DNA of 48,952 bases from an uncultured Schlesneria sp. (lineage in GTDB: Bacteria > Planctomycetota > Planctomycetia > Planctomycetales > Planctomycetaceae): positions 1 to 48,952 of the forward strand of contig CAIULL010000251.1 of the NCBI GenBank assembly GCA_903899985.1. Direction: 5' to 3'. A program made the position numbers and the translations under genes. Every line of letters begins with the position of its first letter. Positions within the stretch are counted from its first letter, which is position 1. Below, piece after piece: positions 4,674-48,041 of the stretch. The notes under the pieces were generated by a model, which did not search any database, was not told where the DNA came from, and saw only the letters and a list, made by a program, of their open reading frames with translations.

Positions 4674-4721
4674 GTAGGCCTCACGACAATCCGAGAAACC
4701 TCACGCACAAGAGTGACGTCC

Positions 4722-6194: not shown

Positions 6195-6317
6195 TTTTGA
6201 AGGTCGTCCAATTTCGATTTGATCTCGCGCCGCGTGACGAGTTTTGGTATACTACTCTGCGGTGGGTGGACGCCTGTGTTCGCAAAGACTCTTTCTCTCC
6301 CTGCAGGAGATTTTCTG

Positions 6318-10078: not shown

Positions 10079-10429
10079 AGTTCGATCGAAGCCACAACAA
10101 CGCTAAAAAACTTGCAGCGAACCACAATCGACGGAAATTCTGCGCGTCAAATCGCATCACGCGTGTTGAGACTGCTGAGGCCGATCAAATCTGCCCTCCG
10201 TGATGGTTGCGGCTGACAAAATTTCGACCACCTGGAAATTCTCGGCCCATTCACAGGCCATTTCCGCGAGATCAAGAAGTAACGAACCGCTTCTTTTTGG
10301 CTTTGCCGAAATACAACTCAGCAGAATTCATCTTCGCAGCGAAGGAAGAATTTTCGCCCCTTGGGAAACGGCATCAATTTCGCACCTGAAGCCTGAGCCA
10401 TATCTTACAAGTGAAAAATGGGGCCAATC
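10079..10429. other. Intergenic region before the TPR gene
   Basis: About 350 bp with no credible gene and no strong hairpin terminator. It presumably carries the promoter of the TPR gene; the AT-richer part is just before 10430, but I cannot point to a reliable -35/-10 pair. Confidence 0.3.
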
Positions 10430-31000: not shown

Positions 31001-34000
31001 CTGAACTGGCCAGCCGACCGAACAACTGAGCATCCGATTCACTGGAATTGAGCTGCCGCAGCAAAACCTGCCCATGAGTCCAGGCCATATCGAATACGCG
31101 GTCGGCAAGATGTCGATCGTGATATTTGTCGATCAGTGTCAAAGCCCCATCACGCGACTCAGACATGCCGACGACAAGATCAATGATCACCGCTTCGTCA
31201 GGTGCCAGCGAGATTCGTCGGCGGATGGCAGCGATCGGGTCGAGGACCGAGCCATCACTGTTAGTCAGGTTTCCAGAACGCCCCATGGCCAGCGGAGCTG
31301 CCGTTGTGCGGTTCCGACCGATGAATTTGGATCGATCTGTTTCGTACGAAGCATCGCCGACCGACGGCCCGCGCACGTCCAGAATATGCATCATCCAGGG
31401 GGGCTTTTCCTGATGCGATCGAGGCCTGCGGGTACAGAGAATCGCCTGTCGTTGTTCGAGGATTTCGGTCTGAACGAACAGATTTGAAAACGCCGGGTGC
31501 GTCGCGTCGGAATTCACGGCGGCAAGCACGACCTCTGCATAGCTTGTCAATTCGATCGTCCGGATGACCTTTGAACGATTCACGATCGTCGTACGACGAA
31601 TTTCAATGTCATCTTCGGGCGAAACGGCAATCTCGGTATGAAGTTTGATCAGGCTGTCTCGACGCCGGAATTCGGCTCGTGCCTGTGAGAAAATCGCCTC
31701 GTAACGTTTGGTTGGTTGAAGTGTCGGTTGATGCGATGTCGACCAGACTTCGCCGCTGTTGACATCGCGGAGATAGCAGAAGATTCCGGTGCTGTCGCGT
31801 GTGCTGTCTTCGCGCCAACGATTGACGGCAAGATCTTTCCACTGGCTATATCCCCCTCCACTGTTCGTCACCATGACATGGTAGCGGCCGTTCGACAGCA
31901 GATGAACTTCGGGGCCTGGAGTGTTCGGTGTCGTAAAGACACGAATCAGCGACTCGCGATCACCAACTGGCGGACGATCGGATGAGACCTCACTCGCGTG
32001 CGGAAAACACGGAAGCGCTTGTGGAATTCGCTCTTGCAACAACAGATCCGTTGCCTGGAATTCCGGGTCTGATTCGAACCGTTTTTGCATCGGGCGATTG
32101 AGCAGCACGTAGGCCAGCGAAAGAAATGTCATCCCCTGATGATGAGCCATATAAGACTGCACGACCGCGTACGATTGTCCCCTGGACAACCGCGATGGCG
32201 TGTAATCAACAGCCTCGTGAAATCCATATGTTCCCTGAAAGCCTTTGACGGTCATGACCTGCAGGTTGGCGCAGGCCTTTCTCGGGGCCACCATCAAGCC
32301 CATCGCAGCAGCGTAAGGGGCGATGACCAGATCGTCCGCCAGACCTCGCTTGAACCCCAGACCCGGTACACCAAACGCCCGATATTGATAATTCAACTGT
32401 GCGTCGGTCGCCTGATAACCCGATTCCGAAACACCCCAGGGGACTCCCCGCTGTTTCCCATATTGGATCTGGCGGTCAATTACGGCATGATAGGTCTGAT
32501 CAAGCAGGGTGTTGTCATATGTTGGCATGACCAGTAACGGCATCAGGTATTCGAACATGGAACCACTCCATGACAGCAATGTCTGTTGACCGTGCAACGT
32601 CGTCAGTGACCGCCCCAAAGCGAACCAGTGTTCCTGTTCAAGCCGTCCCTGGGCGATTCCGACAAAGCTCGCCAGCCGCGCCTCCGATGCAAGCAGGTCA
32701 TAAAAACTGCCGTCACGCCGCATCTCACTGACGTTAAACCCAATCGCCAAAAGACGACGTCGAGGGTCGTATAAAAAGTCGTATTCAATATCGGCGAACT
32801 CGCGGCACTGATCCGCACGTTCATCGATATCCAGCAGGACTCGATTCGCCTGCTGGATCGATGCATGCAGGAGTTCTCGTAACTGAATCAGCCATGTCAG
32901 TTCGGCTGGTTCAAGCGACTTGGCTTTCGGCACAATGGCCGAATTGGAAAGGGAATCGGGACCCAAGTCACCGCATTGATCATTAATGAATGGGCCTGCA
33001 ATCATCGCATCGATCTTCGGGAGCAACAGGCTCTCGAAGCCTGCGATGTCACGTAATGAGGGAATTTCGTCCAACTGTGTGAAAACCGCTTGCCATTCGC
33101 TGACCTGCTGAAATCCGTTGGCTGATCCGTACGGTTTTACGCTCGGCAATGTCGTCGAATGGGTCAACCACAAAGCGTTGGACGAGAGATCGGCAAGCTG
33201 ATCAAGACATTGTTGTTCGAGATCTCGCACGACCACGACGACAGGGTTTTGATCGATATCCGACGAGCCCTTCAGAAACTTGGCCGCGGCGCTCTGGATC
33301 TCTTGCAACAACTCGCACGATGTCGTGAGCTTCTGCGTAACGGGGATTTTAGTATTGTTTCGACGCAAGAGGATCATCAGCTCATCATCCGATCGAAGAT
33401 CGCGATGGGGCGGTGTGACGGTGGCATCGTTCGACGGTACGACTGAATCGGAAGATAGCCCGAAACGCGATCGAGCGGCCTTTTCCTTCTTTCCGTTTAC
33501 ATCAGCCTCAAGGATTTGAAGCGTCATCGGTAACGACTTCCAAAACCCAGATGAGATCAGCTTATTATCACCCAGCTCGATAAGTCCGCGACGTAACGTC
33601 AACAGGTGACCCGATAGATTTCCACTGTCGACGGCAGAGACGTATTTGGGAAAGAGCGGTTGCAGCGAACGGGTGTCGTACCAATTCAAAAAATGACCGT
33701 GAAATCGTTCAAGTCGGCCCATCGATCGCATGACATTGCTGGTCCGATCAAGCAATTGTCGAGACGTAATAAAGCCAAAGTCATAGGCAGCAAGATTCGC
33801 CAACAGCGAGAGACCAATATTGGTCGGTGATGTCCGATGAGCGACGACGGGTGTGGGAAATTCCTGAAAGTTATCAGGCGGCAACCAATTGTCTTCCGGT
33901 CCGACAAATTTTTGAAAAAATCGCCAGGTCTTCCGAGCCAGACCGTGCAGAAATAACGTCTGCTCAACGTCGAGCACGTCGTTTCGTTTTGGAATGGGCT

Positions 34001-37000
34001 GGCTGATTTTCCAGGCGATAAAGGGAGCCATCATCCAGGCCACAAGTATCGGCGCAGCGATCCAAAGCGATTCACGGCGAAAACCCATCAAAATTCCGCC
34101 GACAACGATCGACAATATCGGTGCAATCCACATTGTCCGATACCAGTCAACCACCCCCCCCGTTCTTTCGCGTTCGGCGTCGCTGGAGGTCTTCCATTCA
34201 AGCATCCGCCGGTGCGTCCAAACTCCCCGGACAATCGTTCGCACAATTGCATCAAGACTGAAACAGGCCTCGTAGGGAAGAAAGGCGATGGTCAACGCCG
34301 ATTGCATCAGGCTGGTGCCGAAGGAATTGAACGACCTTCGCAAATGCATGGCGAGCGGAAGTTCCGCCGCTTTTCGAAACGATGCCACGAATGACACACA
34401 GAGCGAGGGGATCAACATAATCCCGACGACAACCGCCGTCACGAATCCAGGTCGTGTCAGGTCGAACCAGGCCAGGATCAATATCAGAATGACGGCGAAT
34501 GGAACAACACTTCGTCGCAGGTTATCCAGAATTTTCCAGCGAGAAAGGAGGCTGATGGGATTGCCGCTTGATGGCAACAACCATCCAGCGATTTGCCAGT
34601 CGCCTCGAATCCAACGGTGCCGCCGACTGACATCGGACTGATAACTGGAGGGAAAACTTTCAAAGACGCAGATGTCACTCACCAGCCCAGATCGAGCATA
34701 GCAACCTTCCAGCAAATCGTGACTGAGAATTCGATTTTCCGGAAATCGCCCGTCGACAGTCGCCGAAAACACATCGACGTCGTAGATCCCTTTGCCGATG
34801 AACGAGCCTTCGCGGAAAACGTCCTGGTACACGTCTGAGATTGCGCGTGTATACGGGTCAATGCCGGGTTCACCGCCAAACAGTTCCAGAAACCAGGAGG
34901 GCCTCGTTTTCTCGAATCGGACTGCAACCCCGGGTTGCAGGATCCCGTAACCTTCAACGACGATGTTCCGACGGGGATCGAGCTGAGCCCGATTAAGTGG
35001 ATGGGCCATCGTTCCCACAAGTTGTCTGGCCGCGTCGCGCGGCAGCAGAGTGTCGGTATCAAGTGTGATGACATACTTCACGTCAGTCAGCAGCGCGACA
35101 TCACCCACAACCAGCGAAAATCCATCGGTCGAGCCCTGCAGTAAAAGCTTGTTAAGTTCGCCAAGTTTCCCTCGCTTTCGCTCATAGCCCATCCAGACCT
35201 GTTCCTGGGGGTTCCAGCGACGCGGCCGATGTAACAGGAAAAAGAGATCGGTCGGTAACGAATCAGTATCGTCTCCGTTGTTCTGGCATTCCGCTTGATC
35301 GCGATATTTCGCATTGAGAGATTCAATCCCCGCGCCGGCCAAAGCGATTAAGGCGTCGTCTTCGGGCAGGACCTGCTCGACCGCGTCGCGGACATCTGTC
35401 AGTAAACAGAAACGCAAGTGAGGATCGCGATTTGCAAGATAGCGAACTTCAAGTCCTTCCAAAAGTCGTTTCACACCGTCATGCGTGACCAGCATCGTGG
35501 GAACTACCGCGAGAGCACTGCATTCCACGGGAATTCCCTCAGAAAAATCCATTCGCGGCAAACGATTCGGCCTGACGAACATCGTCGTCAACCAGTTCAC
35601 CAGCCCAACCCCCAGATGAGTCGCGCTGACGAAGAGAAGCGCGGCGACAAACCATAAGCCGAACCGCTGACCGTGAAGGATTGTCGTTCGTTCTAAAACC
35701 CCAGCGGTCACCAGAGTTGAAATCAGGCCGATCCCACCGACATAGAATAAAAGAGGCTGCTTGCTTACCAATTGTGCCGCAAAGGTAACGATGGAATGAC
35801 GCATTTGAGCTGCGCGTTCCAGTTGGGGCAGTCCCTTGTCAACGAGATAGAACCCGACATGTGACTTCCGATCTGATGCTCCTTTTTCTAATTCCGATCG
35901 TCGCGCCAGGTGAATTGCTTTTGCCGCAACGTCGTGTTCGGAAAGCGGACTTCGCTTGGCCATGGCTTCGATCACGTGACGATATTGGTCGCGCGTGCTG
36001 AAATCCATGTTTGAATAGACACCAGCCGGATCATCCCGCAACGAATGCTCGACGACACTCAATCCTTCAACGAAATCGCGCCAGTCAATCGCTTCGAGTT
36101 CACGCAAACTGTTAATGCTGTTACCAATCGAAACCTGATCGACCGCCTGCTGATGTCCTTCGATCTGAACCATATTTTCAATGGTTTGCCCGTTTTCCGC
36201 CAACCGCTGCTCGACCCAGGTGAGTGGAAATGCGAGTGCCGGACTTTGGCGTTGAAGTCGCCGCGCCAGTTCCGCCACAAACGCACTGGAAAGAACAGGA
36301 TTCGGTCTCGCCATATCGGCCAGGCACAGCACCAGATCTTTAGGCGAGGTCTCGACACATTGAATGAACTGATCGGCCCAGTGAGCGGCCGAGTCACGAT
36401 CAAGGCGACCCGTCGCGATTCTTGCGGCGACGCGACGCAAATTCTCGATGAGCGCCTGCCGCATCATGATCGGCACGGCCCAGAGCTCACCCAACTTGAG
36501 CGGTCGCCGTCGCTGATAGGCCGCCACATACGTCCGCAGAGTTTCAGCATCGATCCTTCCATCAACGTGCGAAATCAATTCGAGCGCCAGATCGTAGACG
36601 CAGGGATATCCCGCGGAAGGACCGTTCATCAGCCGAGGCAGATCTCGGCTGTACTTGGTCGGCAGATGTCGTCGAGCGGTCCGGATCTGCTCTTCGATCA
36701 AATAGTAGTTGTCGAGCAACCACTCCCCCGCCGGCACGATGTGTCGATCATGCTGCACAGCATCGAGCATCAACTTGTAAGCTTCTCGCAGAATGTTCTG
36801 GTTATCGGTCAGCCGAACCAGCAACCGGTCTGGTCCCGACCGAGGGTCGATTTCATGCCATGCGGCCAGCGTCTCGGCATGTTCCTCTAACTGGCTTAGA
36901 CTGAATAACTCTGAGCGTAAGGGTAAGTCGTTTCCAAATTCCCGGAAAAGACCATCAACGCCGATCCTTGCTTTTAAACGCTCGATTCCCTGGCGAATCG

Positions 37001-37019
37001 TCTTGCTGCGCAGCTTCAA
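28083..37019 (-). CDS. Cyclic beta-1,2-glucan synthase-like protein (GT84-GH94, NdvB/Cgs-type)
   Basis: 2978 residues, the length of Cgs/NdvB proteins. In order: N-terminal cytoplasmic region (1-410); membrane helices (about 415-480); a processive glycosyltransferase domain with LDTDT (D654, D656) and RHRWIRGDW (about 800); two more membrane clusters (about 835-885 and 963-1003); a glycoamylase-like domain with WGVSESGYQATD (about 1520) and a VQSYMAHHQGMT segment; two GH94-type sugar-binding domains (about 1740-2000 and 2240-2500); and a C-terminal GH94 phosphorylase-like domain with DWNDGMN (D2660, D2663) and GGQYTHAAIW. In known enzymes the GT part extends beta-1,2-glucan from UDP-glucose and the GH94 part sets chain length before cyclisation. 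The product would be a periplasmic glucan; here this is inference. Start is TTG 37019 with AGAGGA seven bases upstream. Confidence 0.88.
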   Translation of the reverse strand: MKLRSKTIRQGIERLKARIGVDGLFREFGNDLPLRSELFSLSQLEEHAETLAAWHEIDPRSGPDRLLVRLTDNQNILREAYKLMLDAVQHDRHIVPAGEWLLDNYYLIEEQIRTARRHLPTKYSRDLPRLMNGPSAGYPCVYDLALELISHVDGRIDAETLRTYVAAYQRRRPLKLGELWAVPIMMRQALIENLRRVAARIATGRLDRDSAAHWADQFIQCVETSPKDLVLCLADMARPNPVLSSAFVAELARRLQRQSPALAFPLTWVEQRLAENGQTIENMVQIEGHQQAVDQVSIGNSINSLRELEAIDWRDFVEGLSVVEHSLRDDPAGVYSNMDFSTRDQYRHVIEAMAKRSPLSEHDVAAKAIHLARRSELEKGASDRKSHVGFYLVDKGLPQLERAAQMRHSIVTFAAQLVSKQPLLFYVGGIGLISTLVTAGVLERTTILHGQRFGLWFVAALLFVSATHLGVGLVNWLTTMFVRPNRLPRMDFSEGIPVECSALAVVPTMLVTHDGVKRLLEGLEVRYLANRDPHLRFCLLTDVRDAVEQVLPEDDALIALAGAGIESLNAKYRDQAECQNNGDDTDSLPTDLFFLLHRPRRWNPQEQVWMGYERKRGKLGELNKLLLQGSTDGFSLVVGDVALLTDVKYVITLDTDTLLPRDAARQLVGTMAHPLNRAQLDPRRNIVVEGYGILQPGVAVRFEKTRPSWFLELFGGEPGIDPYTRAISDVYQDVFREGSFIGKGIYDVDVFSATVDGRFPENRILSHDLLEGCYARSGLVSDICVFESFPSSYQSDVSRRHRWIRGDWQIAGWLLPSSGNPISLLSRWKILDNLRRSVVPFAVILILILAWFDLTRPGFVTAVVVGIMLIPSLCVSFVASFRKAAELPLAMHLRRSFNSFGTSLMQSALTIAFLPYEACFSLDAIVRTIVRGVWTHRRMLEWKTSSDAERERTGGVVDWYRTMWIAPILSIVVGGILMGFRRESLWIAAPILVAWMMAPFIAWKISQPIPKRNDVLDVEQTLFLHGLARKTWRFFQKFVGPEDNWLPPDNFQEFPTPVVAHRTSPTNIGLSLLANLAAYDFGFITSRQLLDRTSNVMRSMGRLERFHGHFLNWYDTRSLQPLFPKYVSAVDSGNLSGHLLTLRRGLIELGDNKLISSGFWKSLPMTLQILEADVNGKKEKAARSRFGLSSDSVVPSNDATVTPPHRDLRSDDELMILLRRNNTKIPVTQKLTTSCELLQEIQSAAAKFLKGSSDIDQNPVVVVVRDLEQQCLDQLADLSSNALWLTHSTTLPSVKPYGSANGFQQVSEWQAVFTQLDEIPSLRDIAGFESLLLPKIDAMIAGPFINDQCGDLGPDSLSNSAIVPKAKSLEPAELTWLIQLRELLHASIQQANRVLLDIDERADQCREFADIEYDFLYDPRRRLLAIGFNVSEMRRDGSFYDLLASEARLASFVGIAQGRLEQEHWFALGRSLTTLHGQQTLLSWSGSMFEYLMPLLVMPTYDNTLLDQTYHAVIDRQIQYGKQRGVPWGVSESGYQATDAQLNYQYRAFGVPGLGFKRGLADDLVIAPYAAAMGLMVAPRKACANLQVMTVKGFQGTYGFHEAVDYTPSRLSRGQSYAVVQSYMAHHQGMTFLSLAYVLLNRPMQKRFESDPEFQATDLLLQERIPQALPCFPHASEVSSDRPPVGDRESLIRVFTTPNTPGPEVHLLSNGRYHVMVTNSGGGYSQWKDLAVNRWREDSTRDSTGIFCYLRDVNSGEVWSTSHQPTLQPTKRYEAIFSQARAEFRRRDSLIKLHTEIAVSPEDDIEIRRTTIVNRSKVIRTIELTSYAEVVLAAVNSDATHPAFSNLFVQTEILEQRQAILCTRRPRSHQEKPPWMMHILDVRGPSVGDASYETDRSKFIGRNRTTAAPLAMGRSGNLTNSDGSVLDPIAAIRRRISLAPDEAVIIDLVVGMSESRDGALTLIDKYHDRHLADRVFDMAWTHGQVLLRQLNSSESDAQLFGRLASSVIYATSARRANSTILAKNLRGQSGLWGYGISGDLPIVLLRISNAEKIDLVRQVVQAQAYWRLKGLAVDLVIWNEDSSGYRQVLQDLIIGVISAGIGVQTLDRPGGIFVRRAEQMSDEDRILFQTVARVIIVDTDGTLAEQVERRARTDVRVAELLPSRLRRMDVMPNVETSSRDLLFFNGFGGFTTDGREYVIRLEPGQVTPAPWVNVIANPNFGTVISESGGAYTWGLNAHEFRLTPWNNDPVSDVSGEAFYLRDEESGYYWSPTPQPARGTRPYVCRHGFGYSVFEYTENGITSELWIYVATDAPIKFAVLKVKNTSGRSRRLSATAYSEWVLAEMRSKSLMHVVTEVDPKCGALVARNPYSIEFSERIAFIDVSDPIRSVTGDRAEFLGRNGNSTKPAAMSRMRLSGKVGAGLDPCAAMQVSFELADNREREIVFTMGVGRDIDDVRTLVQRFRGHEPARHALESVWGLWNHTLGAVRVETPDPALNLMANGWLLYQTLSSRFWARSGFYQSGGAIGFRDQLQDVAALIHTEPRLIREHLLTCAGHQFGEGDVQHWWHPPQGRGVRTHFSDDFLWLPLIACRYVMGTGDTGVLDEVVPFIEGRPVKPDEDAYYDLPTRSNESATLYEHCVRSIVNGLSFGAHGLPLIGCGDWNDGMNLVGEKGNGESVWLAFFLYDILQKFSKIARARSDLNFAERCETEAAKLIRNIEEHAWDGEWYRRAYFDNGEPLGSATNIECQIDSLPQSWSILAKAGDPARSRMAMDAVDRRLVRRDSGLIQLFDPPFDHSALDPGYIKGYVPGVRENGGQYTHAAIWTVMAFAELGDHKRAWELFSLINPVNHGSTSEQIAVYKVEPYVVAADVYAVAPHIGRGGWTWYTGSAGWMYRLITESLLGLHLEVDKLRIAPCLHADWKSYTIQYRFRETFYRITVLQPEPSRSVKRVTLDGVDQNDCLIALSDDRRSHQVEVELG

Positions 37020-37850: not shown

Positions 37851-38783
37851 ATTGTCCCCTCAAGCATTACCCGTGAACGATTACCGTTCGTTAGGCAACT
37901 TTGGAATCTTTGGGCAACATTGGACATTGACACCCTTGCGTGGCAACTCCGGGTGCCACTGGCGTGCATCTTTGCTCGCCAGTGCTCTTGGTTTCCGCCC
38001 GGTCCGCAGTGAAACATCGATTCAAAAACGTTGAGCAACTCTGGAATTTTTGCGCAACTTTGGACATTGACGCTCTTCCGTGGCGACTCCAGGTGCCACT
38101 GGCGTGCGTCTTCGCTCGCCAGTGCTCTTGGTTTCCGCCCGGTCCGTTGTGAAACATCAATTCAAAATCCGTTGAGCAACTCTGGAATCTTTGCGCAACT
38201 ATGGACATTGACACCCTTCCGTGGCGATGAAATCCGTGCCTCCGCTTGACGGCCTTCCGTCAAGCAGTGCCCGGCGACACAACAACCGTCATTTCAAAAT
38301 CCGTTGAGCAACTCTGGATTCTTTGAGCAACTATGGACATTGACGCTCTTCCGTGGCGATGAAAACCGTGCCACCGCTTGACGGCCCTCCGTCAAGCAGT
38401 GCCCAGCGACGCAACGACCGTCGATTCAAAATCCGTTGAGCAACTATGGAATCTTTGAGCAACTATGGGCATTGACGCTCTTCCGTCGCGATGAAATCCG
38501 TGCCACGCTTGACGGTCTTCCGTCAAGCAGTGCCGAGCGACACAACGAACTTCGTTTCAAAAACCGTTGAGCAACTATGGGTTTTGACACTCTTCCGTGG
38601 GAACACAGGGAGCCGGATGCCACTGGCGTGCGTCTTCGCTCGCCAGTGCTCCTGCTTTCCGTGAAATCCGCTGTGAAACATCAATTCAAAAACTTTAGGC
38701 AACTATGGGAAACTATGAGCAACATTGGACATCGATTGCCCCTCCGCACTGCCCATGAACGGTTACCGTTCATTAGGCAACGA
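37851..38783. repeat. Tandem array of about seven units with interchangeable hairpins
   Basis: Core beginning TTGAGCAACT (or TTAGGCAACT) recurs at 37891, 38031, 38172, 38304, 38436, 38567 and 38695: periods 140, 141, 132, 132, 131, 128. The core reads about GAGCAACTCTGGAATC, TTTGAGCAACTATGG, ACATTGACGCTCTTCCGTGG. Each core is followed by one of two hairpins: type A, CACTGGCG...CGCCAGTG (37957-37984, 38097-38124, 38621-38648), or type B, GCTTGACGG...CCGTCAAGC (38244-38265 and in the next two units). The array is bounded on both sides by a third hairpin type, TGAACG...CGTTC followed by TTAGGCAAC (about 37,873-37,900 and 38,753-38,783). Short frames across it are period artefacts. Confidence 0.9.
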
Positions 38784-39762: not shown

Positions 39763-40383
39763 ATGCTCCACCGTGCCGCCCAAGTCATACGCGATTGCGA
39801 GGGACAGCTCCGTGGACTTATCGCCGAAGCATCAGCAGCCGGCGATTACGATGCCGTTGATCAGATTGCAGCTTGGGCTCGCACTCTCGCTGCAATGAAA
39901 CCATATTTACCTCGCCATACCGATTCGATTCCGCCTGCCTCCTTGGACACGCGGAATGGATTTGGCAAAGACTCGAACGAGCAAAATAACGCCGCACCGA
40001 GCCAAATTTCTTCTCCCCATCCAAGGCGGCCTACAGCGAAAAAGGCTACATATCCAAAGTTTTCCCGGCAACGGAGTGAGTTAATAAAGACCGGATGGTC
40101 AAAGAAAGAAAAACAGGAATATTCGCATCGTGCACCGTGGACCGTAGTCGAGGTGTTAGCCAGCCGAATAAACCAATGTCGGGGCCGCACATTTACTTCT
40201 GAAGAAATTTTTCCTTTGTCTGATCCGAATGGGGTCGAGATCCCGTCCTATCAAGCATACCTTTGCTTAGCTTGGCTCAAAACCGAAGGCTTGATTGTAC
40301 AGGACGGCCGTCAGGGGTATTACATTGCAGTGGATGGTGATTTATCAACGGCGGCTCAGGTTAATTGGAAGAAGATGACATAG
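39763..40383 (+). CDS. Hypothetical protein with a C-terminal winged-helix-like domain
   Basis: 206 residues. N-terminal helical part (1-50: LRGLIAEASAAGDYDAVDQIAAWARTLAAM) of a type I have seen in accessory-region proteins; a low-complexity linker (about 55-110) rich in Ser, Pro, Lys and Arg; and a C-terminal part (about 120-195: WTVVEVLASRI, RTFTSEEIFPLSDPNGVEIPSYQAYLCLAWLKTEGLIVQDGRQGYYI) with the helix-helix-turn-helix-wing pattern of wHTH proteins. It may be the regulator or a DNA-binding specificity component of the following module, from which it is separated by 95 bp. Start ATG 39763 follows a weak site and the promoter at 39692. Function is inferred from fold pattern only. Confidence 0.65.
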   Translation: MLHRAAQVIRDCEGQLRGLIAEASAAGDYDAVDQIAAWARTLAAMKPYLPRHTDSIPPASLDTRNGFGKDSNEQNNAAPSQISSPHPRRPTAKKATYPKFSRQRSELIKTGWSKKEKQEYSHRAPWTVVEVLASRINQCRGRTFTSEEIFPLSDPNGVEIPSYQAYLCLAWLKTEGLIVQDGRQGYYIAVDGDLSTAAQVNWKKMT

Positions 40384-40478
40384 AACCCGCTGCAAGAGCC
40401 TTCGATATTCAGCCTGAATTTTGAGCGTATTGCATTCACGTCCTCCCACACGGAGGTCCCAGAGTATTGGAGAATTAA

Positions 40479-42428
40479 GTGCCAACACCATGGAGTTTCG
40501 AACAAAGATCTCGTCGATCCGTCAAACGCGATCCATTCGAAGCGGAATTCTTCACAGGGACCGAAGATTCCGAGGAAATCTTCGGTCGTACGGATGCACT
40601 TGTCCGCGAGGCGGTCCAAAACACTCTGGATGCTAGAAACCCGAAGGCCAGTGGACCTGTGCGTATTCGTTTTGCTTTAAGCAAGCCGGAAGAGATTCTT
40701 GGCTCAAGCAGTGCAGAGCCATTCCTTAATGGACTTATTCCGCACCTCAACGTCCTGGGCAATGAGGTGGTAAACACAGCCAAGGGTGTGCCTGCAATGC
40801 CGTTCCTGACGATCGAGGATTTTGGTACTCAAGGATTATGTGGAGATCCAGCAAGGAGCTTGGACCCGGAGAGCTTTGACCCGAACGATCCTCAATTCTT
40901 CTACTGGTTTTGGAGGAACATTGGCCGGTCGGGAAAGGGTGGAGCAGACATCGGACGGTGGGGCCTTGGAAAGACAGTATTCCCTGCAACATCGAAGATT
41001 AATGCGGTTTTTGGATTGACTGTGAGGAGCACCGACGGGCGGAAACTGCTTATGGGCCAGGCCATCACAAAGATCCATAGGATCGGCCAGGAGGAATATG
41101 TACCTGAGGGTTTCTTTTGCGATCCAAACGCGAAGAACGAACTCCAGATGCCCTTTGAAAACACGGCTATTGTCGATGACTTTGAGAAGAGTTTCCGATT
41201 AACTCGTGGGAACGAACCAGGGCTCTCTGTGGTTGTTCCATTTCCATTCGACAGAGTCAAATCTTCCGAATTGATGCGGTCACTGATCCTGCATTTCTTT
41301 CTCCCCATCCTTCGAAATCAGCTAATCGCCGATTTTAGCGGCCCCGAAATTGGTGATTTGCGAGTGGACGCTCAGACCATACGTAGCCACGCTGCAACAC
41401 TCGAATGGAAAGGACCACGCCGAGAAAAAAAAGACAGACCACCTCCATTTGATTTCGCTGATTGGGCATGGAAAAAACAAGCTAAGGACGATTTGGTCCG
41501 CTTGATTACCCCCACTGACGCAAAGGTTCCAATGTGGGGAGATCATCTTGTCGAACCTGAAGTGCTTGCAAAATTGAGGGCGGCCTTTGAAGCTTCCGAG
41601 AGAATCGGAATTCGCGTTCCAATGACAATTGAGAAGAAAACTGGCGCAGTTGAAAACACGTCCTTTGATGTTTTCCTTGAAAGGGATTCCGATGTGGCCC
41701 GCAGCGAGGATCATTTCATCCGTGAAGGAATGACAATTAGCAGCATCGACACGCTTGCCGGACATAAAGGGACGCGAGGACTCGTGCTGGTGGACGAGAA
41801 ACCGTTGTCTGGCATGCTCGGCGACGCGGAGGGGCCTGCACACACCGACTGGGGCACGGGTGAGTCGAGACCGGACGCAACTTATCTCCGATGGAAAAAA
41901 CGCGTAAGCTTCGTTCGGCTGAGCATCGCAAAACTCCTGTTAATTCTTTCTCCTCCCCCGAAAGGCTTGGACGAAGATTGGTTGCAGGATATCTTCGCAA
42001 TTGATGACCCTAAACTTCAGGGGGCGAAAAAAGCGAAAGGTAAACAAAAGAAGCCTGGACCGCCGCCTCCTCCACCACCCCCTCCGCCATCAAAACCAAA
42101 GCCAATCCGCGTGGTCACATGTCCGAATGGGTTCCGCATACTCGGAAATGAAGTGATTTCGGAGTTGCCAGACCGCGTACGGGTACGCGTGGCCTACGAT
42201 ATGCCCTCTAAAGATCCGTTTGCAACTTATAGCGTCTTTGACTTTCGGTTCGAGCCGGGCAAGCATAAGCCCCTGGATATCACGCTGACAAATGCAGAAT
42301 TCGTGCAGTGCGAGAACAATCTAATCGTGTTCGCGCCGAAATCTGCTGGCTTCGAGCTCCAAGTCACCGGATTCGATATACATCGAGATTTGATCGTCCG
42401 TGCCGAGCATGAGGAGTTCGAAGTATGA
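40479..42428 (+). CDS. GHKL-type ATPase (MutL/MORC/Hsp90-like), candidate defence protein
   Basis: 649 residues. Bergerat-fold ATP-binding motifs visible in order: N box LVREAVQNTLDA (41-52; E44, N48, D51), G1 box IEDFGTQGL (112-120) and a G2-like GRWGLGKTVF (159-168). A middle region (about 200-520) of mixed alpha/beta sequence follows, then a run of ten prolines flanked by Lys (about 526-542) and a beta-rich C-terminal domain (about 548-649). Proteins starting with this REAxQNxLDA box occur beside Dcm/Vsr and other restriction-type genes; MutL/MORC-like ATPases in such neighbourhoods are known. GTG 40479 is the start, with GGAG six bases upstream. The stop overlaps the next ATG by four bases, so the next product is translationally coupled. 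It likely senses or clamps DNA; that role is inference. Confidence 0.8.
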   Translation: MPTPWSFEQRSRRSVKRDPFEAEFFTGTEDSEEIFGRTDALVREAVQNTLDARNPKASGPVRIRFALSKPEEILGSSSAEPFLNGLIPHLNVLGNEVVNTAKGVPAMPFLTIEDFGTQGLCGDPARSLDPESFDPNDPQFFYWFWRNIGRSGKGGADIGRWGLGKTVFPATSKINAVFGLTVRSTDGRKLLMGQAITKIHRIGQEEYVPEGFFCDPNAKNELQMPFENTAIVDDFEKSFRLTRGNEPGLSVVVPFPFDRVKSSELMRSLILHFFLPILRNQLIADFSGPEIGDLRVDAQTIRSHAATLEWKGPRREKKDRPPPFDFADWAWKKQAKDDLVRLITPTDAKVPMWGDHLVEPEVLAKLRAAFEASERIGIRVPMTIEKKTGAVENTSFDVFLERDSDVARSEDHFIREGMTISSIDTLAGHKGTRGLVLVDEKPLSGMLGDAEGPAHTDWGTGESRPDATYLRWKKRVSFVRLSIAKLLLILSPPPKGLDEDWLQDIFAIDDPKLQGAKKAKGKQKKPGPPPPPPPPPPSKPKPIRVVTCPNGFRILGNEVISELPDRVRVRVAYDMPSKDPFATYSVFDFRFEPGKHKPLDITLTNAEFVQCENNLIVFAPKSAGFELQVTGFDIHRDLIVRAEHEEFEV

Positions 42429-43201
42429 TCCGACGATTCAACTACACCGGAAGAAAGCCCATTCCATCAGAAAACGTGCACATTCGTCTCAACGCTGATC
42501 GAACAATTGATGTAAATTGGAATTTCGAGGAAGGCTTTTTTCCGTCTTCGGCGTTCGTAATTGTTGAGGCATTTTCAGGTGGATCGTTATCCGGCGAACG
42601 ATTTAGGTTCGGCACCGTCGGCACACGCATAATTCCATCTGTCCGACAGCTAACGGATGCCTTGGGAGAATCTCCGTTTTTCAAATTCAAGGTCGTCGAT
42701 TCGACCGAGGCCGTGGGGCAGCTGCTTGGGATCGCCGAGATGATCCGTCCTAAGCGGGAAGGCGACGACGATGGCGCTGCACAAAGGTCAATACTACCAG
42801 TCAATCCGACGGATCTAGAGGATCAGGTTTGGCGACTCACATTTTTGCACGGACGACCTTGGTTAGAGGTTAACAGCCGCATCGACGGCATTATGCAACT
42901 GACTCGCTCTGATCGTCGGTTTTTTTCATTGGTTTACGCCTCGGTAGTTCGAGAAATTCTCACTCGTATATTGGTAATTGAGCAATTTACGGACCCGGAT
43001 GGCGATCCTGATGATTGGCACGTTCAATGGCTAAGATGGGGGATTCACTGGCACCCAGACAATGAACGCCCAGCAGAAGGTGAGCGAGACAAGCAGCTGG
43101 ATACGTGGATCGAGTGGATTGAAGAGGTCTGCTCTGCCTTCTGCAAAAAGCACGATGTACGTAGGCATTTTGAACTGGTTGATTCAGCGGAGGCGAAATG
43201 A
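42425..43201 (+). CDS. Unknown protein, second gene of the GHKL module
   Basis: 258 residues, not recognised. The N-terminal half (1-125) is beta-rich (NVHIRLNADRTIDVNWNF, AFVIVEAFSGGSLSGERFRFG, FFKFKVVDSTEAVGQLLGIAE); the C-terminal half is helical and rich in Trp, Asp and Glu (RFFSLVYASVVREILTRILV, DPDDWHVQWLRWGIHWH, DTWIEWIEEVCSAFCKKH). No nuclease or NTPase motif is evident. It starts within the stop of the GHKL gene (ATGA overlap) and ends within the start of the third gene (ATGATG), implying fixed stoichiometry, perhaps a structural or adaptor subunit. No signal peptide or membrane segment. Confidence 0.75.
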   Translation: MIRRFNYTGRKPIPSENVHIRLNADRTIDVNWNFEEGFFPSSAFVIVEAFSGGSLSGERFRFGTVGTRIIPSVRQLTDALGESPFFKFKVVDSTEAVGQLLGIAEMIRPKREGDDDGAAQRSILPVNPTDLEDQVWRLTFLHGRPWLEVNSRIDGIMQLTRSDRRFFSLVYASVVREILTRILVIEQFTDPDGDPDDWHVQWLRWGIHWHPDNERPAEGERDKQLDTWIEWIEEVCSAFCKKHDVRRHFELVDSAEAK

Positions 43202-43926
43202 TGGGCGATCAACTTCGTCGATTGAACGAAAATGGTATTGCGATCTTTAAGGACTACCTTGCGGACGCACGTAAGGACGGTTCTCTTGCGGCGCCATATC
43301 ACATACTCACCTCGCCAGAACTCTCATCCTCAATAACTGGAGCGCCGCTAATCGAACGTCCGGGATTCACCACAAAAAGGGACGCCGCCGAATACTTGGC
43401 ATCAGCACTTGCTCCGATTGACAAAGGAGACCCTGTTCGCGATGCCGGCCTTTGGACATGGCTAGCACTATTTTTCTTTGATGACATCTGTCCAAAGTCT
43501 TCCAGAGGAATTCGTAAGCCCAACGCAAACCCTCACTATATTCTGGACCCTAACAATTCTCAGCGAAGTTACCGCCACCTTCTTGCGACGCCCTATCGCA
43601 TCCTAAGAGCCCTTCCCGATCACAACCGAATCTTTCTCGACGCGCCCTTACCAATACATGGCGACCTCGTGGAACAGACAGTCGGTCGTCTATATGTGAT
43701 TCGCAAACCTGCAGTGAGTGAGCTTATCGATCGTCTCTACTTCGACAAAAAGCGAGGATGTCAGAAACGAGGAATCCTAAACAAGACAGCAAAGCCAGGG
43801 GACTTAAGGAATAGATTGCCGGTTCGGATTGAACAATTGGAAATGACGTACGACATCGATTCATTAAGCGGAGACCAGCTTCTCGGTCTTCTCGGAGCGG
43901 AATTTGCAAGTTGGTGTTCGAACTGA
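43198..43926 (+). CDS. Unknown protein, third gene of the GHKL module
   Basis: 242 residues. Distinct features: GLWTWLALFFFDDICPKSSRG (about 103-123), YILDPNNSQRSYRHLLATPYRI (about 133-154) with conserved-looking aromatic and basic residues, and a C-terminal MTYDIDSLSGDQLLGLLGAEF. The combination resembles a DUF (I think DUF6339) remembered from accessory regions, but I cannot verify this. No obvious catalytic signature; an Asp/Glu/Lys nuclease core is not visible. The start overlaps the previous stop. The stop is 47 bp from the stop of the convergent vsr-like gene, with no clear terminator between, so the two operons may form antisense transcripts. Confidence 0.75.
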   Translation: MMGDQLRRLNENGIAIFKDYLADARKDGSLAAPYHILTSPELSSSITGAPLIERPGFTTKRDAAEYLASALAPIDKGDPVRDAGLWTWLALFFFDDICPKSSRGIRKPNANPHYILDPNNSQRSYRHLLATPYRILRALPDHNRIFLDAPLPIHGDLVEQTVGRLYVIRKPAVSELIDRLYFDKKRGCQKRGILNKTAKPGDLRNRLPVRIEQLEMTYDIDSLSGDQLLGLLGAEFASWCSN

Positions 43927-43973
43927 CGACGCATGTCTCCGGTTCGGGGCCTAAGATGAACTCGACCAAGTCA

Positions 43974-44414
43974 TTATTCCGGAATTGAATTGCGTCCATG
44001 GGTAATCTGAATTAACCGTCGCTCCAGCTTTGCCGACAACCGACTTACCCCTGCAGTTTCACATTCCCACACGACTATAACGATCCAGCCGAGATTCTTG
44101 AGTTGCCGTAGTTTCACTCGGTCCCTCTGAACATTGTCTGCAAACTTCTTGTTCCAGAACTCAATTCGGCTCTTCGGAGAATATGCGAATCGACATCCTC
44201 GGTGCCTATGCCAGAAGCAACCGTGGACGAAGATCGCGGCGTGATAACGAGGGAGAACGATATCGGGCGAACCGGGCAAATCCTTTCGGTGCAATCGGAA
44301 GCGGTAGCCGAGCCGGTGAAGCAATGACCGAACAACAAGTTCCGGCGAAGTATTTTTACTTCGTATCCGCGACATGTTCCAACTGCGGTGTTCCTTCGTT
44401 ATCCTGTCGACCAT
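43974..44414 (-). CDS. Vsr-type DNA mismatch endonuclease
   Basis: 146 residues, the normal Vsr length. Seen: RSWNMSRIRSKNTSPELVVRSLL (the N-terminal SxNMxxIxxKxTxPE motif), LPGSPDIVLPRY with the catalytic Asp, IFVHGCFWHRHRGC with the metal/phosphate-contacting His residues, EFWNKKFADNVQRD and WIVIVVWECE. In E. coli Vsr nicks 5' of the T in T:G mismatches made by deamination of Dcm-methylated C. Vsr genes next to a C5-methyltransferase are standard. ATG 44414 is chosen; it overlaps the methyltransferase stop by 16 bp, as expected for coupling, and longer frames upstream lie inside that gene. In the absence of an obvious restriction enzyme, a direct defence role is possible but unproven. Confidence 0.92.
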   Translation of the reverse strand: MVDRITKEHRSWNMSRIRSKNTSPELVVRSLLHRLGYRFRLHRKDLPGSPDIVLPRYHAAIFVHGCFWHRHRGCRFAYSPKSRIEFWNKKFADNVQRDRVKLRQLKNLGWIVIVVWECETAGVSRLSAKLERRLIQITHGRNSIPE

Positions 44415-46060
44415 GAGTTTAACTTGCCCGCCTTCAGTAGTAGGCTCGAGACCGAACGCGCAATCTGGTACGCCAAGTACGGTGGAACTGCGTTTCCTAC
44501 TTGTACGCATTGCGACGTGCGTGGACCACAAAAGTAGTAGTTATCAGGGAACGTCTGCAAGCGTGCTGCTTCTCTAACGGTCAGGCTGCGGCACTGCGTC
44601 GCATCCGGATGGATGAAATAATGCCCGTCTTTGGATATGTGCGACGTGATGGTCGTTGATGGCAAATCCGCGACCTGAACCCGAAAACGATCTTCAAAGT
44701 CACCGGATGCCGCGTTGTCGTGATCTGGCTGCAAATCAACGGGAAAATCGCTTAGTCTCGGCGAAATTCCATGTGTCCCCGCGTAGCATGCCGCGAACAG
44801 ATACCGGGCAAGATCGCTGTCCATATGTGCCCGGGTTTCATGGTTGCAGACCCCTTGAAGCCGTTTATCTTGATACCACCATGCAAGCGGATTTTTTTTT
44901 GATGGCGTGTTACTCGATTTGACAAAATTACCTCCACGGTCATCCACTGGGACTTCCAAAGCTGTGACGACATTATGAATCTCGTCGTAAATCATGGTGT
45001 CATCTCCGTCCCCGAGCGTCTTCAACCATCCGGAATCGTGGTTTGATCCATTAACCAGCGTCTGTCCATTGATTGTCTCAATCCATTGTTGAGCGCCGTC
45101 ACTCAGGGTGACGTACTTTGCCCCTTCGCGTCTACGCGACAGCCCGCTTCGTAGTCTGGGCAGATCCCCAATGACCTCGTTGACGGTCGGGGCGCGTTCT
45201 TTTGAAAGTGGCGACAGATCGACGTCGCCGAGATCCTCGCGAATTCCAATCAGAATGACACGATGTCGAACCTGCGGAATGCCGTATTGTTCGCAGGCCA
45301 CGATGAAGTCCGTCGGTTCGTACATTTCTTTCAGTAACGATGTTCCCGTGGAGACGACCGGAACGATGCGATATCGCTGCGACGCCGCAGATCGCTTTAT
45401 TTCGCCAAAGGCGGACTTTGGCGACTGAAGGTCACCAATGATGGCGTCGAACACTTTTTTGTTGTTTACAACTGCGGACAACAAGCCTTTCACATTCTCC
45501 ATCACAAAAACCGCCGGCCAATGATCCGCGATAATCCGGAGGTACTGCCGATACAATGACGAACGGTGGTCGTCTTCAATTCGATAGGACGCATTACCTT
45601 GGTTACGGACACGACCGACAACCGAATACGCCTGACAGGGCGGTCCGCCGATCAGCACCCAAGTTTTTTTCATCTCGCCAATCGCTTCGCGAATTCTTTT
45701 GGAGATCGCCAGATGCTGGCTGTCTGACGCACCAAGTTCTGCATGAAGAGCTTCGTGTTCTGCGGCCTGCCATCGTGTGTATAAATCCGAAGAAATCTCT
45801 TTCAGACGTTCGGGCAACGTGTGGAGCGGCAGCTTCTGTCGAAGCACTTGGTAATAAAGCTCGGGTACATCTTCCGTTTGAAACTGACGGAAGAAGCTTC
45901 GCAAGCGAAGCGTCTCATGCGCGTACGCATCTTTTTCAATCGAAAGAGCTACTTTGAACGAGGGGCAGCCAGAATCAGGGATGAATGCACTGAACCCTTC
46001 TCCAAGTCCCCCTGGGCCCGCAAAGATGTCGACCACCGGAATCGTCCGCGAAACGGGCAT
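44399..46060 (-). CDS. DNA cytosine-5 methyltransferase (Dcm-type)
   Basis: 553 residues. Motif I VVDIFAGPGGLGEGF (9-23, SAM binding), motif IV GGPPCQAYS (catalytic C142), motif VI ENVKG (188-192), motif VIII QYGIPQVRHRVILIG (258-272), motif IX REAARLQTFPD (496-506) and motif X QVGNAVPP (520-527). The target-recognition region between VIII and IX is about 220 residues, fairly long; the recognised sequence cannot be read from it. Role: 5-methylation of cytosine in a specific site, self-marking for a linked restriction or defence activity. ATG 46060 has GGAAAA seven bases upstream. The downstream vsr gene overlaps; two small unknown genes precede it on the same strand after 130 bp. Confidence 0.95.
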   Translation of the reverse strand: MPVSRTIPVVDIFAGPGGLGEGFSAFIPDSGCPSFKVALSIEKDAYAHETLRLRSFFRQFQTEDVPELYYQVLRQKLPLHTLPERLKEISSDLYTRWQAAEHEALHAELGASDSQHLAISKRIREAIGEMKKTWVLIGGPPCQAYSVVGRVRNQGNASYRIEDDHRSSLYRQYLRIIADHWPAVFVMENVKGLLSAVVNNKKVFDAIIGDLQSPKSAFGEIKRSAASQRYRIVPVVSTGTSLLKEMYEPTDFIVACEQYGIPQVRHRVILIGIREDLGDVDLSPLSKERAPTVNEVIGDLPRLRSGLSRRREGAKYVTLSDGAQQWIETINGQTLVNGSNHDSGWLKTLGDGDDTMIYDEIHNVVTALEVPVDDRGGNFVKSSNTPSKKNPLAWWYQDKRLQGVCNHETRAHMDSDLARYLFAACYAGTHGISPRLSDFPVDLQPDHDNAASGDFEDRFRVQVADLPSTTITSHISKDGHYFIHPDATQCRSLTVREAARLQTFPDNYYFCGPRTSQCVQVGNAVPPYLAYQIARSVSSLLLKAGKLNSWSTG

Positions 46061-46190: not shown

Positions 46191-46661
46191 TTAAGCCAGT
46201 TCCATAATGGCTTTCGCCATCCATTTGCGGGCATCTTCCAAGTTTACAGTAGCCTTTCCTTCGCTCGCGCTGTCTTCGTCTGTCCATACCCCGTTTGGAT
46301 CGTTCCAAGTCAACCAATCAATCAATTCCGTTCGGGTCCCGTCGCGAAGCAGACTTTGCTGGTGCTTTGGATCGTGGTTTTCGAATGGCGGTCGCATCCC
46401 ATGTGATTCTGCCAGAATAGCAAATGCTTCATCGGCACCAATTTCGTATGGAAGTTCGTCCCCAAGAATCGCAAACAATCTATCGATTGATAATTCGAGG
46501 ATATCGCACTCTGGTCCGGTGAGAACCTGCTCCCCGTCATCACGAGTATATTCTTTTGCTCGAGTGTCGAGGTGGAAGCCGCCCCCAAACTCACGGACAA
46601 GCTGCCTCAACCAAGCTGAAGCGGTGTCTGCCGTTGAATCAATTGGAAGATTGAGGTTCAT
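46191..46661 (-). CDS. Hypothetical protein upstream of the methyltransferase
   Basis: 156 residues, acidic, not recognised. Conserved-looking parts: TASAWLRQLVREFGGGFHLDTRAKEY (helix then beta), CDILELSIDRLFAILGDELPYEIGADEAFAIL, and EDARKWMAKAIMEL at the C-terminus. No signal peptide. The start ATG (46661) overlaps the stop of the preceding gene in an ATGA arrangement, so the pair is translationally coupled. Its distance of 130 bp to the methyltransferase leaves open whether it belongs to the same transcript. Confidence 0.7.
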   Translation of the reverse strand: MNLNLPIDSTADTASAWLRQLVREFGGGFHLDTRAKEYTRDDGEQVLTGPECDILELSIDRLFAILGDELPYEIGADEAFAILAESHGMRPPFENHDPKHQQSLLRDGTRTELIDWLTWNDPNGVWTDEDSASEGKATVNLEDARKWMAKAIMELA

Positions 46662-47487: not shown

Positions 47488-47802
47488 TTAGCCATTGGAG
47501 CCGCGATTTCGCCAATACCCTATTCGGCGACGAGCGTGAGCGACGGCAAGGATAACAGCCTCGGTCTCGCATAGCTCAACGATGATTGAATAGGGAAACC
47601 GCTTCAAGTTCGATCGTCGGATGTCTCGTCCCTCGGACGCGGCCTCATGCGGAGGAAGATTTTTGGGATCATTCTCGACGCGCCGCAGCGCGCTTTCGTA
47701 GGACAGCAGGAATCTTAGCCCGACTCCGACTTCACGTTGTTCGTACCAAGACGCCGCCTGGTAGAGTTCTTGTTCTGCTTCCGGCCGAATAAGAACCAAC
47801 AC
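47488..47802 (-). CDS. Type II toxin of the RelE/ParE family
   Basis: 104 residues. Seen: LIRPEAEQELYQAASWYEQREVGVGLRFLLSYESALRRVENDPKNLPP, IRRSNLKRFPYSIIVELCETEAVILAVAHARRRIGYWRNR, the typical beta-alpha-alpha-beta order with the C-terminal Val-Ala-His-Arg-Arg end of ParE-like toxins. ParE proteins poison gyrase and RelE proteins cut mRNA at the ribosome; the sequence alone favours ParE but does not settle it. Start GTG 47802 shares a base with the stop of the antitoxin gene (TAGTG), which fits translational coupling from the antitoxin. Confidence 0.9.
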   Translation of the reverse strand: MLVLIRPEAEQELYQAASWYEQREVGVGLRFLLSYESALRRVENDPKNLPPHEAASEGRDIRRSNLKRFPYSIIVELCETEAVILAVAHARRRIGYWRNRGSNG

Positions 47803-48041
47803 TACCGATTCTCACTTTGAATTCTGTGACGAATTCGCTGAAGCGATTCATTTGCGTCAATTGCTTCCGATGGGTTAACGTGATGACGCTCCGAACGGGC
47901 GAGTATCTCAACCTTCCACCCGGCGTCGATTTCGGATTGAGAATCAGCCGACGTCAGACTCTCAAGAAGCTCGACCGCGAGCAACTCACGATCATTGTCG
48001 TCCAATTTCAACGCGCTTTCACGAATCTCTTTTAGAGTCAT
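47802..48041 (-). CDS. Addiction-module antitoxin (short helical, TIGR02574-like)
   Basis: 79 residues: MTLKEIRESALKLDDNDRELLAVELLESL, AGWKVEILARSERHHVNPSEAIDANESLQRIRHRI. The sequence pattern (LxxxER/DRxxLAxxLLxSL, then W...I..R..) matches the small putative addiction-module component usually paired with RelE/ParE toxins. It lies first in the operon, as antitoxins do, and would bind and neutralise the toxin and repress the promoter. The ATG at 48041 has no strong ribosome-binding site (AGAG nearby). Confidence 0.85.
   Translation of the reverse strand: MTLKEIRESALKLDDNDRELLAVELLESLTSADSQSEIDAGWKVEILARSERHHVNPSEAIDANESLQRIRHRIQSENR

What the first reader, a model, noticed from the sequence alone, without database searches (positions are those of the whole stretch)
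39763..46060. Candidate undescribed defence system: GHKL ATPase plus two unknown coupled proteins, convergent on Dcm and Vsr
Seen directly: a promoter and wHTH-like gene, then three genes overlapping by 4 bp each (GHKL ATPase, unknown 258 aa, unknown 242 aa), then 47 bp later, in the opposite direction, vsr and dcm overlapping each other. Known: MutL/MORC-type GHKL ATPases have been found in restriction-type neighbourhoods with Dcm and Vsr, and the MZA defence system combines a MutL-like protein with Z1 and AIPR proteins. Here Z1, AIPR and any recognisable restriction nuclease are missing, and their place is taken by two proteins I cannot assign. Inference: methylation marks self, the ATPase complex detects unmethylated or invading DNA, and Vsr or an unknown protein cuts.
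Basis: partly seen in the sequence, partly recalled or inferred. Interest (0 to 1): 0.85.

Follow-up and report, generated by a model that had tools for sequence, protein, structure and literature searches.

The report
Three-gene ATPase cassette beside Dcm/Vsr
A conserved three-gene cassette (a GHKL-type ATPase plus two partner proteins that no database model names) sits next to a DNA cytosine methylase and its repair enzyme where a restriction enzyme would be expected, and looks like a divergent, untested branch of a phage-defence candidate known only from predictions.

Summary
The cassette GHKL-G258-G242 is conserved well beyond this genome: 53 of 56 loci, from several phyla, carry all three genes. 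Dcm or Vsr lies in the fetched flank of 26 of 56 loci, and of 16 of the 27 with at least 5 kb on both sides. G258 and G242 pass no Pfam, NCBIfam or PADLOC cut-off. Pooled profile comparison links them, in gene order, to the second (PDC-M33B) and third (DUF6339) genes of other GHKL cassettes found beside Dcm; the link is moderate. So this looks like a divergent relative of PADLOC's untested candidate PDC-M33, within the GHKL/Dcm/Vsr neighbourhoods described in 2008. One clade of 14 long Dcm proteins has 11 members with no gene of 90 aa or more between them and a cassette, which suggests that the cassette does the restricting. Against an obligatory methylation mark: 7 of 16 further cassette genomes show no C5 methylase, and the window's closest relatives show no Dcm beside the cassette.

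The parts
39763..40383 (+). 206-aa HTH-like gene; optional first gene of the cassette. Homologues stand in the same place in L022, L025 and L082 (invariant GWSK and HRA motifs).
   Evidence: found in 4 of 56 loci; no Pfam hit above cut-off
40479..42428 (+). GHKL-type ATPase, 649 aa: N-box R43-E44-x2-Q47-N48-x2-D51-A52, D114-x-G116, G159-x2-G162-x-G164-K165, T181; then a proline-rich linker and a C-terminal part.
   Evidence: PADLOC PDC-M33A 3.5e-13 over residues 38-291; no Pfam or NCBIfam hit
42425..43201 (+). Partner 1 (G258), 258 aa; probable distant profile relative of PDC-M33B-type partners.
43198..43926 (+). Partner 2 (G242), 242 aa; probable distant profile relative of DUF6339 (PF19866).
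43974..44414 (-). vsr, very-short-patch-repair endonuclease (likely ATG at 44414; the ORF is open to TTG 44531).
44399..46060 (-). Long C5 cytosine methylase (553 aa, C142); best PADLOC model DrmMII 1.6e-91; member of the 14-row long-Dcm clade.
46191..46661 (-). 156-aa ORF upstream of dcm on the same strand; a 34-residue match lies between Vsr and the ATPase in L021 (1.9e-5). Possible minor part.
   Evidence: 70 loci searched; second-best 0.15 in L055
46658..46987 (-). 109-aa ORF overlapping the previous one by 4 bp; membership unknown.
   Evidence: no match in 70 loci

Best explanation
The cassette is the effector half of a restriction-modification-like defence. Dcm marks host DNA. Vsr repairs the T:G mismatches that deamination of 5-methylcytosine causes. 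The ATPase, with its two dedicated partners, acts on DNA lacking the mark, as an ATP-driven clamp in the manner of MutL or MORC, and stands in for the restriction enzyme. Shown: gene order and coupling, ATPase motifs, linkage to Dcm/Vsr, and that no gene of 90 aa or more separates cassette and Dcm/Vsr in 11 long-Dcm loci. Inferred: that it is defence, that it reads methylation, that it clamps DNA. Unknown: what, if anything, cuts. In other lineages the same kind of cassette sits beside complete type II systems or in genomes where no C5 methylase was found, so the mark it reads may be exchangeable.
For: 53 of 56 loci carry all three genes; the gap from ATPase stop to G258 homology has median -4 bp over the 49 loci measurable. 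In 12 Planctomycetota genomes 9 of 13 cassettes have a Dcm within about 7 kb; my own arithmetic from genome sizes gives about 0.06 expected by chance. In the window's 8.0 Mb assembly the only Dcm and the only Vsr found are those beside the cassette. One clade of 14 long Dcm proteins (SH-aLRT 100) has 11 members with no gene of at least 90 aa between Dcm/Vsr and cassette, one with GmrSD between, two beside DUF6339-type cassettes. In 9 of those 11 Dcm is convergent with the cassette. At the window itself none of ten local proteins is a recognisable restriction enzyme. GHKL ATPases work in defence elsewhere: VcSduA needs E27 (PMC12137116, passages read).
Against: 30 of 56 loci show neither Dcm nor Vsr, and 11 of the 27 with at least 5 kb on both sides. 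7 of 16 further genomes show no C5 methylase. The window's nearest cassettes (L015, L016, L019, L061, L063, L066) show no Dcm or Vsr; only L016 and L061 have at least 3 kb on both sides, but the genomes of L061 and L063 have no C5 methylase at all. Direct contact of Dcm and cassette is not unique to the long clade: L018, L023 and L065 (short Dcm) have it too. Outside the window the far side of the Dcm/Vsr block in the long-Dcm loci was hardly annotated (L025's next gene is ThiC), so a restriction enzyme there is not excluded. GHKL membership rests on motifs: no Pfam hit, E. coli MutL not significant (probability 10), topoisomerase VI B only E 0.8-1.
Confidence: 0.47

Rival explanations
1. The cassette is a self-contained defence system that clusters in restriction-modification islands but does not depend on Dcm or Vsr.
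For: 7 of 16 further cassette genomes show no C5 methylase. Dcm/Vsr linkage changes at least 8 times on the ATPase tree. Neighbours vary: EcoRII-type enzyme, GmrSD, a DUF2357-PDDEXK_7 protein, N6/N4 methylase, AAA_21 protein.
Against: Linkage far above chance, and one long-Dcm clade that goes with directly adjacent cassettes across several phyla.
Confidence: 0.28
2. It is a dedicated MutL-like helper of Vsr repair: it assists T:G repair at deaminated 5-methylcytosine rather than defending.
For: Vsr in 21 of 56 loci (this includes a fragment in L076 and a weak hit, 3.9e-4, in L049). In L018 an HhH-GPD glycosylase follows Dcm; such enzymes can do the same repair (recalled). MutL works with Vsr in very short patch repair (PMC2292703, section 6).
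Against: Cassettes occur in genomes where no C5 methylase was found. Divergence and patchy spread (5 of 398 Pseudomonadota, 3 of 247 Bacteroidota, 7 of 247 Acidobacteriota by profile, 12 of 392 Planctomycetota by a single-protein query) look more like defence than repair.
Confidence: 0.13
3. It is an accessory that regulates or boosts an ordinary type II system whose restriction enzyme was lost or is an unrecognised neighbour in the window.
For: EcoRII-type family beside cassettes in L022, L024, L052, L057 (one of four scanned). DUF6339-type cassettes stand beside AlwI, Sau3AI or another type II enzyme on three plasmids.
Against: 11 of 14 long-Dcm loci have no gene of 90 aa or more between, in several phyla, so loss would have to be repeated; outer neighbours were not annotated.
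Confidence: 0.12

Closest known systems
PADLOC candidate PDC-M33 (PDC-M33A ATPase, PDC-M33B; a DUF6339-like third gene in most loci seen here)
   Same: ATPase matches PDC-M33A (window; 18 of 28 members of a mixed set of 18 ATPases and 10 G242). Two further genes of similar size follow; Dcm nearby in five of five PDC-M33A-type loci and Vsr in four.
   Different: No PADLOC model matches G258 (0 of 41); PDC-M33B finds nothing in the window's genome; G242 is not matched by PF19866. The two cassette types are separate branches of the ATPase tree. PDC-M33 is an untested prediction; no paper in the library holds the term.
MORC/paraMORC restriction-modification neighbourhoods (Iyer et al. 2008, PMC2292703, sections 4-6 read)
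   Same: GHKL ATPase with Dcm and Vsr in a mobile, patchy neighbourhood.
   Different: About 70% of the MORC neighbourhoods in that paper have a superfamily II helicase; none among the ten local proteins here. Its text does not describe partners like G258 and G242; its figures are not held, so the unnamed X and Z domains of its Figure 2 could not be compared.
HEF_HK / Response_reg_2 elements (PMC8011034, passages read)
   Same: GHKL protein plus partner beside C5 methylase and Vsr.
   Different: Two Pfam domains that do not match here.
[not shown]
VcSduA / paraMORC3 Shedu (PMC12137116, passages read)
   Same: GHKL ATPase used for phage defence.
   Different: Nuclease fused on the same chain; no such domain found here.
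CapK/CapS regulators of immune operons (PMC13373217, passages read)
   Same: GHKL protein linked to defence.
   Different: HTH-STAS-GHKL kinase and STAS-wHTH repressor; the paper's text has no mention of Vsr, MORC or DUF6339.

Membership tests
PDC-M33 (PADLOC) | ATPase matches PDC-M33A | tested here: met
   3.5e-13 for the window, residues 38-291 of 649 only; 18 of 28 members of A7, which holds 18 ATPases
PDC-M33 (PADLOC) | second gene matches PDC-M33B | tested here: not met
   0 of 41 G258 members at E up to 1; none in G000. Remote relation by pooled profiles only
DUF6339 (PF19866) | third gene passes the Pfam cut-off | tested here: not met
   0 of 13 members of A1 at E up to 0.1. Profile probability 79.1, 90.2, but 12.6 with gap-rich columns dropped
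GHKL superfamily | N-box E..N, DxG, GxxGxGK and T motifs in order | tested here: met
   E44, D114, G159, G162, G164 invariant and N48, K165, T181 at least 90% in 38 sequences; G116 at least 90% in the 13 of A3 but not in the 38
GHKL superfamily | significant similarity to a known member or model | tested here: inconclusive
   no Pfam hit; MutL not significant; PDB profile: topoisomerase VI B at E 0.8-1 over the N-box, best hit an uncharacterised protein at 0.0026 elsewhere
[not shown]
   absent among the ten local proteins
DISARM class 2 | DrmMII-like methylase | tested here: met
   1.6e-91
DISARM class 2 | drmA, drmB, drmC genes | tested here: not met
   none matched by the six proteins scanned with PADLOC; no helicase or PLD domain among ten local proteins
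Type II restriction-modification | C5 methylase | tested here: met
   PF00145 5.3e-42
Type II restriction-modification | recognisable restriction endonuclease | tested here: not met
   none among the ten local proteins
any anti-phage defence system | protects against phage or plasmid | not testable with these tools
   needs an experiment

The most novel reading that the evidence does not exclude
A methylation-reading restriction system with no dedicated nuclease: the GHKL complex traps or compacts unmethylated invading DNA, as eukaryotic MORC proteins compact chromatin, with two structural partners, so that restriction works by silencing rather than cutting.
Probability: 0.15. Interest if true: 0.88.

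Novelty: new variant of a known kind. Interest (0 to 1): 0.55.

Why it matters
It joins scattered leads (paraMORC neighbourhoods, PADLOC's PDC-M33, DUF6339) into one architecture: a GHKL-type ATPase with two fixed partners beside a C5 methylase. It also points to a compact version, with no recognised restriction enzyme at the window locus, in which the question of what restricts can be tested directly. If the cassette is the effector, orphan-looking Dcm/Vsr pairs beside it are not orphans, and the ancestry of MORC chromatin ATPases gains a tractable bacterial model.

Tried and rejected
Family models: nothing above a cut-off for G258 or G242 in Pfam, NCBIfam or PADLOC (NCBIfam saw only the window's proteins, and Pfam only the window's G258). 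PDB profiles of A1, A2 and A3 gave nothing significant (best E 0.3-0.56). Viral contigs: no relative of G258 or of the L085 third gene. Phage records: none for the L055 G242. Plasmids: none for the window's G242, one for that of L055. Homology of G258 with the ATPase C-terminus: not seen (probability 0.1). A shared fourth gene in Dcm-less relatives (L061 against L063): not seen. The 862-aa gene beside L032 is a sensor kinase. MutL and the two-HATPase protein of L064 as direct relatives of the ATPase: not shown by single-sequence profiles. Promoter: not supported. Small subgroups of second or third genes alone give mostly weak links (probability 0.2-42.6, one at 86.8). Literature: searches, of whose listings I opened five papers (PMC2292703 sections; PMC8011034, PMC12458937, PMC12137116 and PMC13373217 passages), showed no description of this cassette; PDC-M33 and DUF6339 returned zero papers.

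Full report
OBSERVATION. The ORFs are as reported. Vsr and Dcm are certain. The ATPase, the 258-aa protein (G258) and the 242-aa protein (G242) have no match above a Pfam or NCBIfam cut-off; PADLOC's PDC-M33A touches the ATPase over residues 38-291. Promoter-like sites are no more frequent than in shuffled sequence.

CONSERVATION. G258 as a single query was found in 12 of 392 Planctomycetota genomes, the window's own included. A pattern scan for G242 returned 40 loci, labelled Planctomycetota, Acidobacteriota, Pseudomonadota, Bacteroidota, Cyanobacteriota, Myxococcota, Nitrospinota and others, with one 5.7-kb contig labelled archaeal. Profile searches found G242 in 5 of 398 Pseudomonadota, 3 of 247 Bacteroidota and 7 of 247 Acidobacteriota genomes, the centre of each draw and some genomes already known included. 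After leaving out seven duplicate contigs (L027, L034, L042, L046, L050, L051, L081), 56 loci remain; 53 hold all three genes on one strand, in the order GHKL, G258, G242; some have truncated or split genes. The median gap from the ATPase stop to G258 homology is -4 bp (n = 49), from G258 to G242 homology 2 bp (n = 51). The three exceptions are a contig edge (L057) and two decayed loci (L060, L083). Closely similar loci L035-L038 were kept in this count.

LINKAGE. Dcm is in the fetched flank of 24 of 56 loci, Vsr in 21, either in 26; with at least 5 kb on both sides 15, 14 and 16 of 27. Weak or partial hits are among these: L049 (Vsr at 3.9e-4, no Dcm by profile), L076 (Vsr fragment), L045 (Dcm at a contig edge), L023 (Dcm at 3.4e-10). 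Whole-genome searches of the 12 Planctomycetota genomes found C5 methylases in 11 and Vsr in 7. Merging fragments I count 14 methylase genes and 9 Vsr genes; 9 and 6 of them lie within about 7 kb of a cassette. In the window's genome the single Dcm and single Vsr found are these. Against this, of 16 further genomes that I chose among the 40 loci, 7 show no C5 methylase, and on the ATPase tree the Dcm/Vsr label changes at least 8 times (55 rows; loci with a flank under 3 kb and no hit were not counted). That tree is a quick one with 15 of 52 inner branches unsupported.

NEIGHBOURS. Where other genes stand with the cassette they vary: a family of four with an EcoRII C-terminal domain in the one scanned, an HhH-GPD glycosylase, GmrSD, a DUF2357-PDDEXK_7 protein with an AAA partner (PADLOC PDC-M26A), a protein with two HATPase domains, a helicase, an N6/N4 methylase, an AAA_21 protein (20 neighbour proteins scanned with Pfam in 45 and 58). 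A tree of 30 Dcm proteins has one clade of 14 long members (SH-aLRT 100). Eleven lie beside a cassette with no gene of 90 aa or more between (window, L021, L025, L030, L053, L055, L075, L078, L080, L082, L084), one has GmrSD between (L026), and two belong to DUF6339-type cassettes (L088, L089); the neighbour labels were set by hand. In 9 of the 11 Dcm is convergent with the cassette; L021 and L055 are in tandem. Direct contact also occurs with short Dcm (L018, L023, L065), and outer neighbours of the long-Dcm loci were hardly annotated, so the replacement reading is a suggestion. The HTH-like gene leads the cassette in the window, L022, L025 and L082.

Profile-profile comparison (single-comparison values). 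Second genes against G258: probability 89.7 with nine sequences, 91.8 with gap columns dropped, 77.9 with thirteen. Third genes against G242: 79.1, 12.6 and 90.2 in the same calls. Crossed pairs stay at 0.4 or less, apart from small subsets (up to 1.2). None of 60 column shuffles reached the observed score for either matching pair, and five decoy families gave at most 0.9. Leaving out one subgroup at a time gives 20.0-88.7 for G258 and 49.2-91.3 for G242. Single subgroups are mostly weak (1.0-42.6 for G258; 2.1, 23.6 and 86.8 for G242), and the second genes of L085-L089 do not detectably match across their three subgroups, so the pooled alignments lean on gene position. Common origin of both pairs is therefore probable, not proven. 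The ATPases align at probability 100 over the ATPase and middle region.

MECHANISM. Most motifs for ATP binding are kept across both cassette types (38 sequences, 9 of them DUF6339-type), so an active ATPase is likely. The partners show no nuclease signature that I could recognise in their conserved columns; this is inspection, not a test. Adjacency to the long Dcm makes the cassette the best candidate for the restricting part. That it reads methylation, and how it disables DNA, is inferred. Because cassettes also occur where no C5 methylase was found, the signal may differ between lineages.

KNOWN OR NEW. GHKL ATPases with Dcm and Vsr were described in 2008 (PMC2292703). PDC-M33 is a prediction without a paper in the library searched. 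What is added here is the divergent cassette type, its partners' probable relation to PDC-M33B and DUF6339, its spread, and the long-Dcm version. I file it as a new variant of a known, unproven kind.

Noticed in passing
window 37895-38580: Array of 132-140 bp tandem repeats upstream of the cassette (89-90% matches) in a stretch where I assigned no gene.
   Followed up: partly
window 11420-11994 and 12294-14179: 204-bp tandem repeats inside the 1391-aa ORF 10418-14593, so repeats of about 68 residues.
   Followed up: no
window 47488-48041: ParE-type toxin and Unstab_antitox gene pair on the minus strand close to the cassette.
   Followed up: no
window 28083-37019: Giant 2978-aa ORF with a TTG start; it looks like a cyclic glucan synthase (recalled, not searched).
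   Followed up: no
L019 and L025 (G337): One genome carries two divergent cassettes; Dcm and Vsr were found beside only one of them.
   Followed up: partly
L076 (G648) 9923-10503: Decayed-looking locus: truncated ATPase and a Vsr fragment overlapping on opposite strands.
   Followed up: no
L064 3950-7281: A protein with HATPase_c_3 and HATPase_c domains and a 356-aa gene without a Pfam hit directly upstream of the cassette, with Dcm and Vsr: two GHKL modules side by side.
   Followed up: no
L101 (Haloplanus sp. GX21 plasmid) 3954-7537: DUF6339 gene in a halophilic archaeon after several small genes, with a separate ATP-binding protein beside Dcm and Pycsar genes.
   Followed up: no
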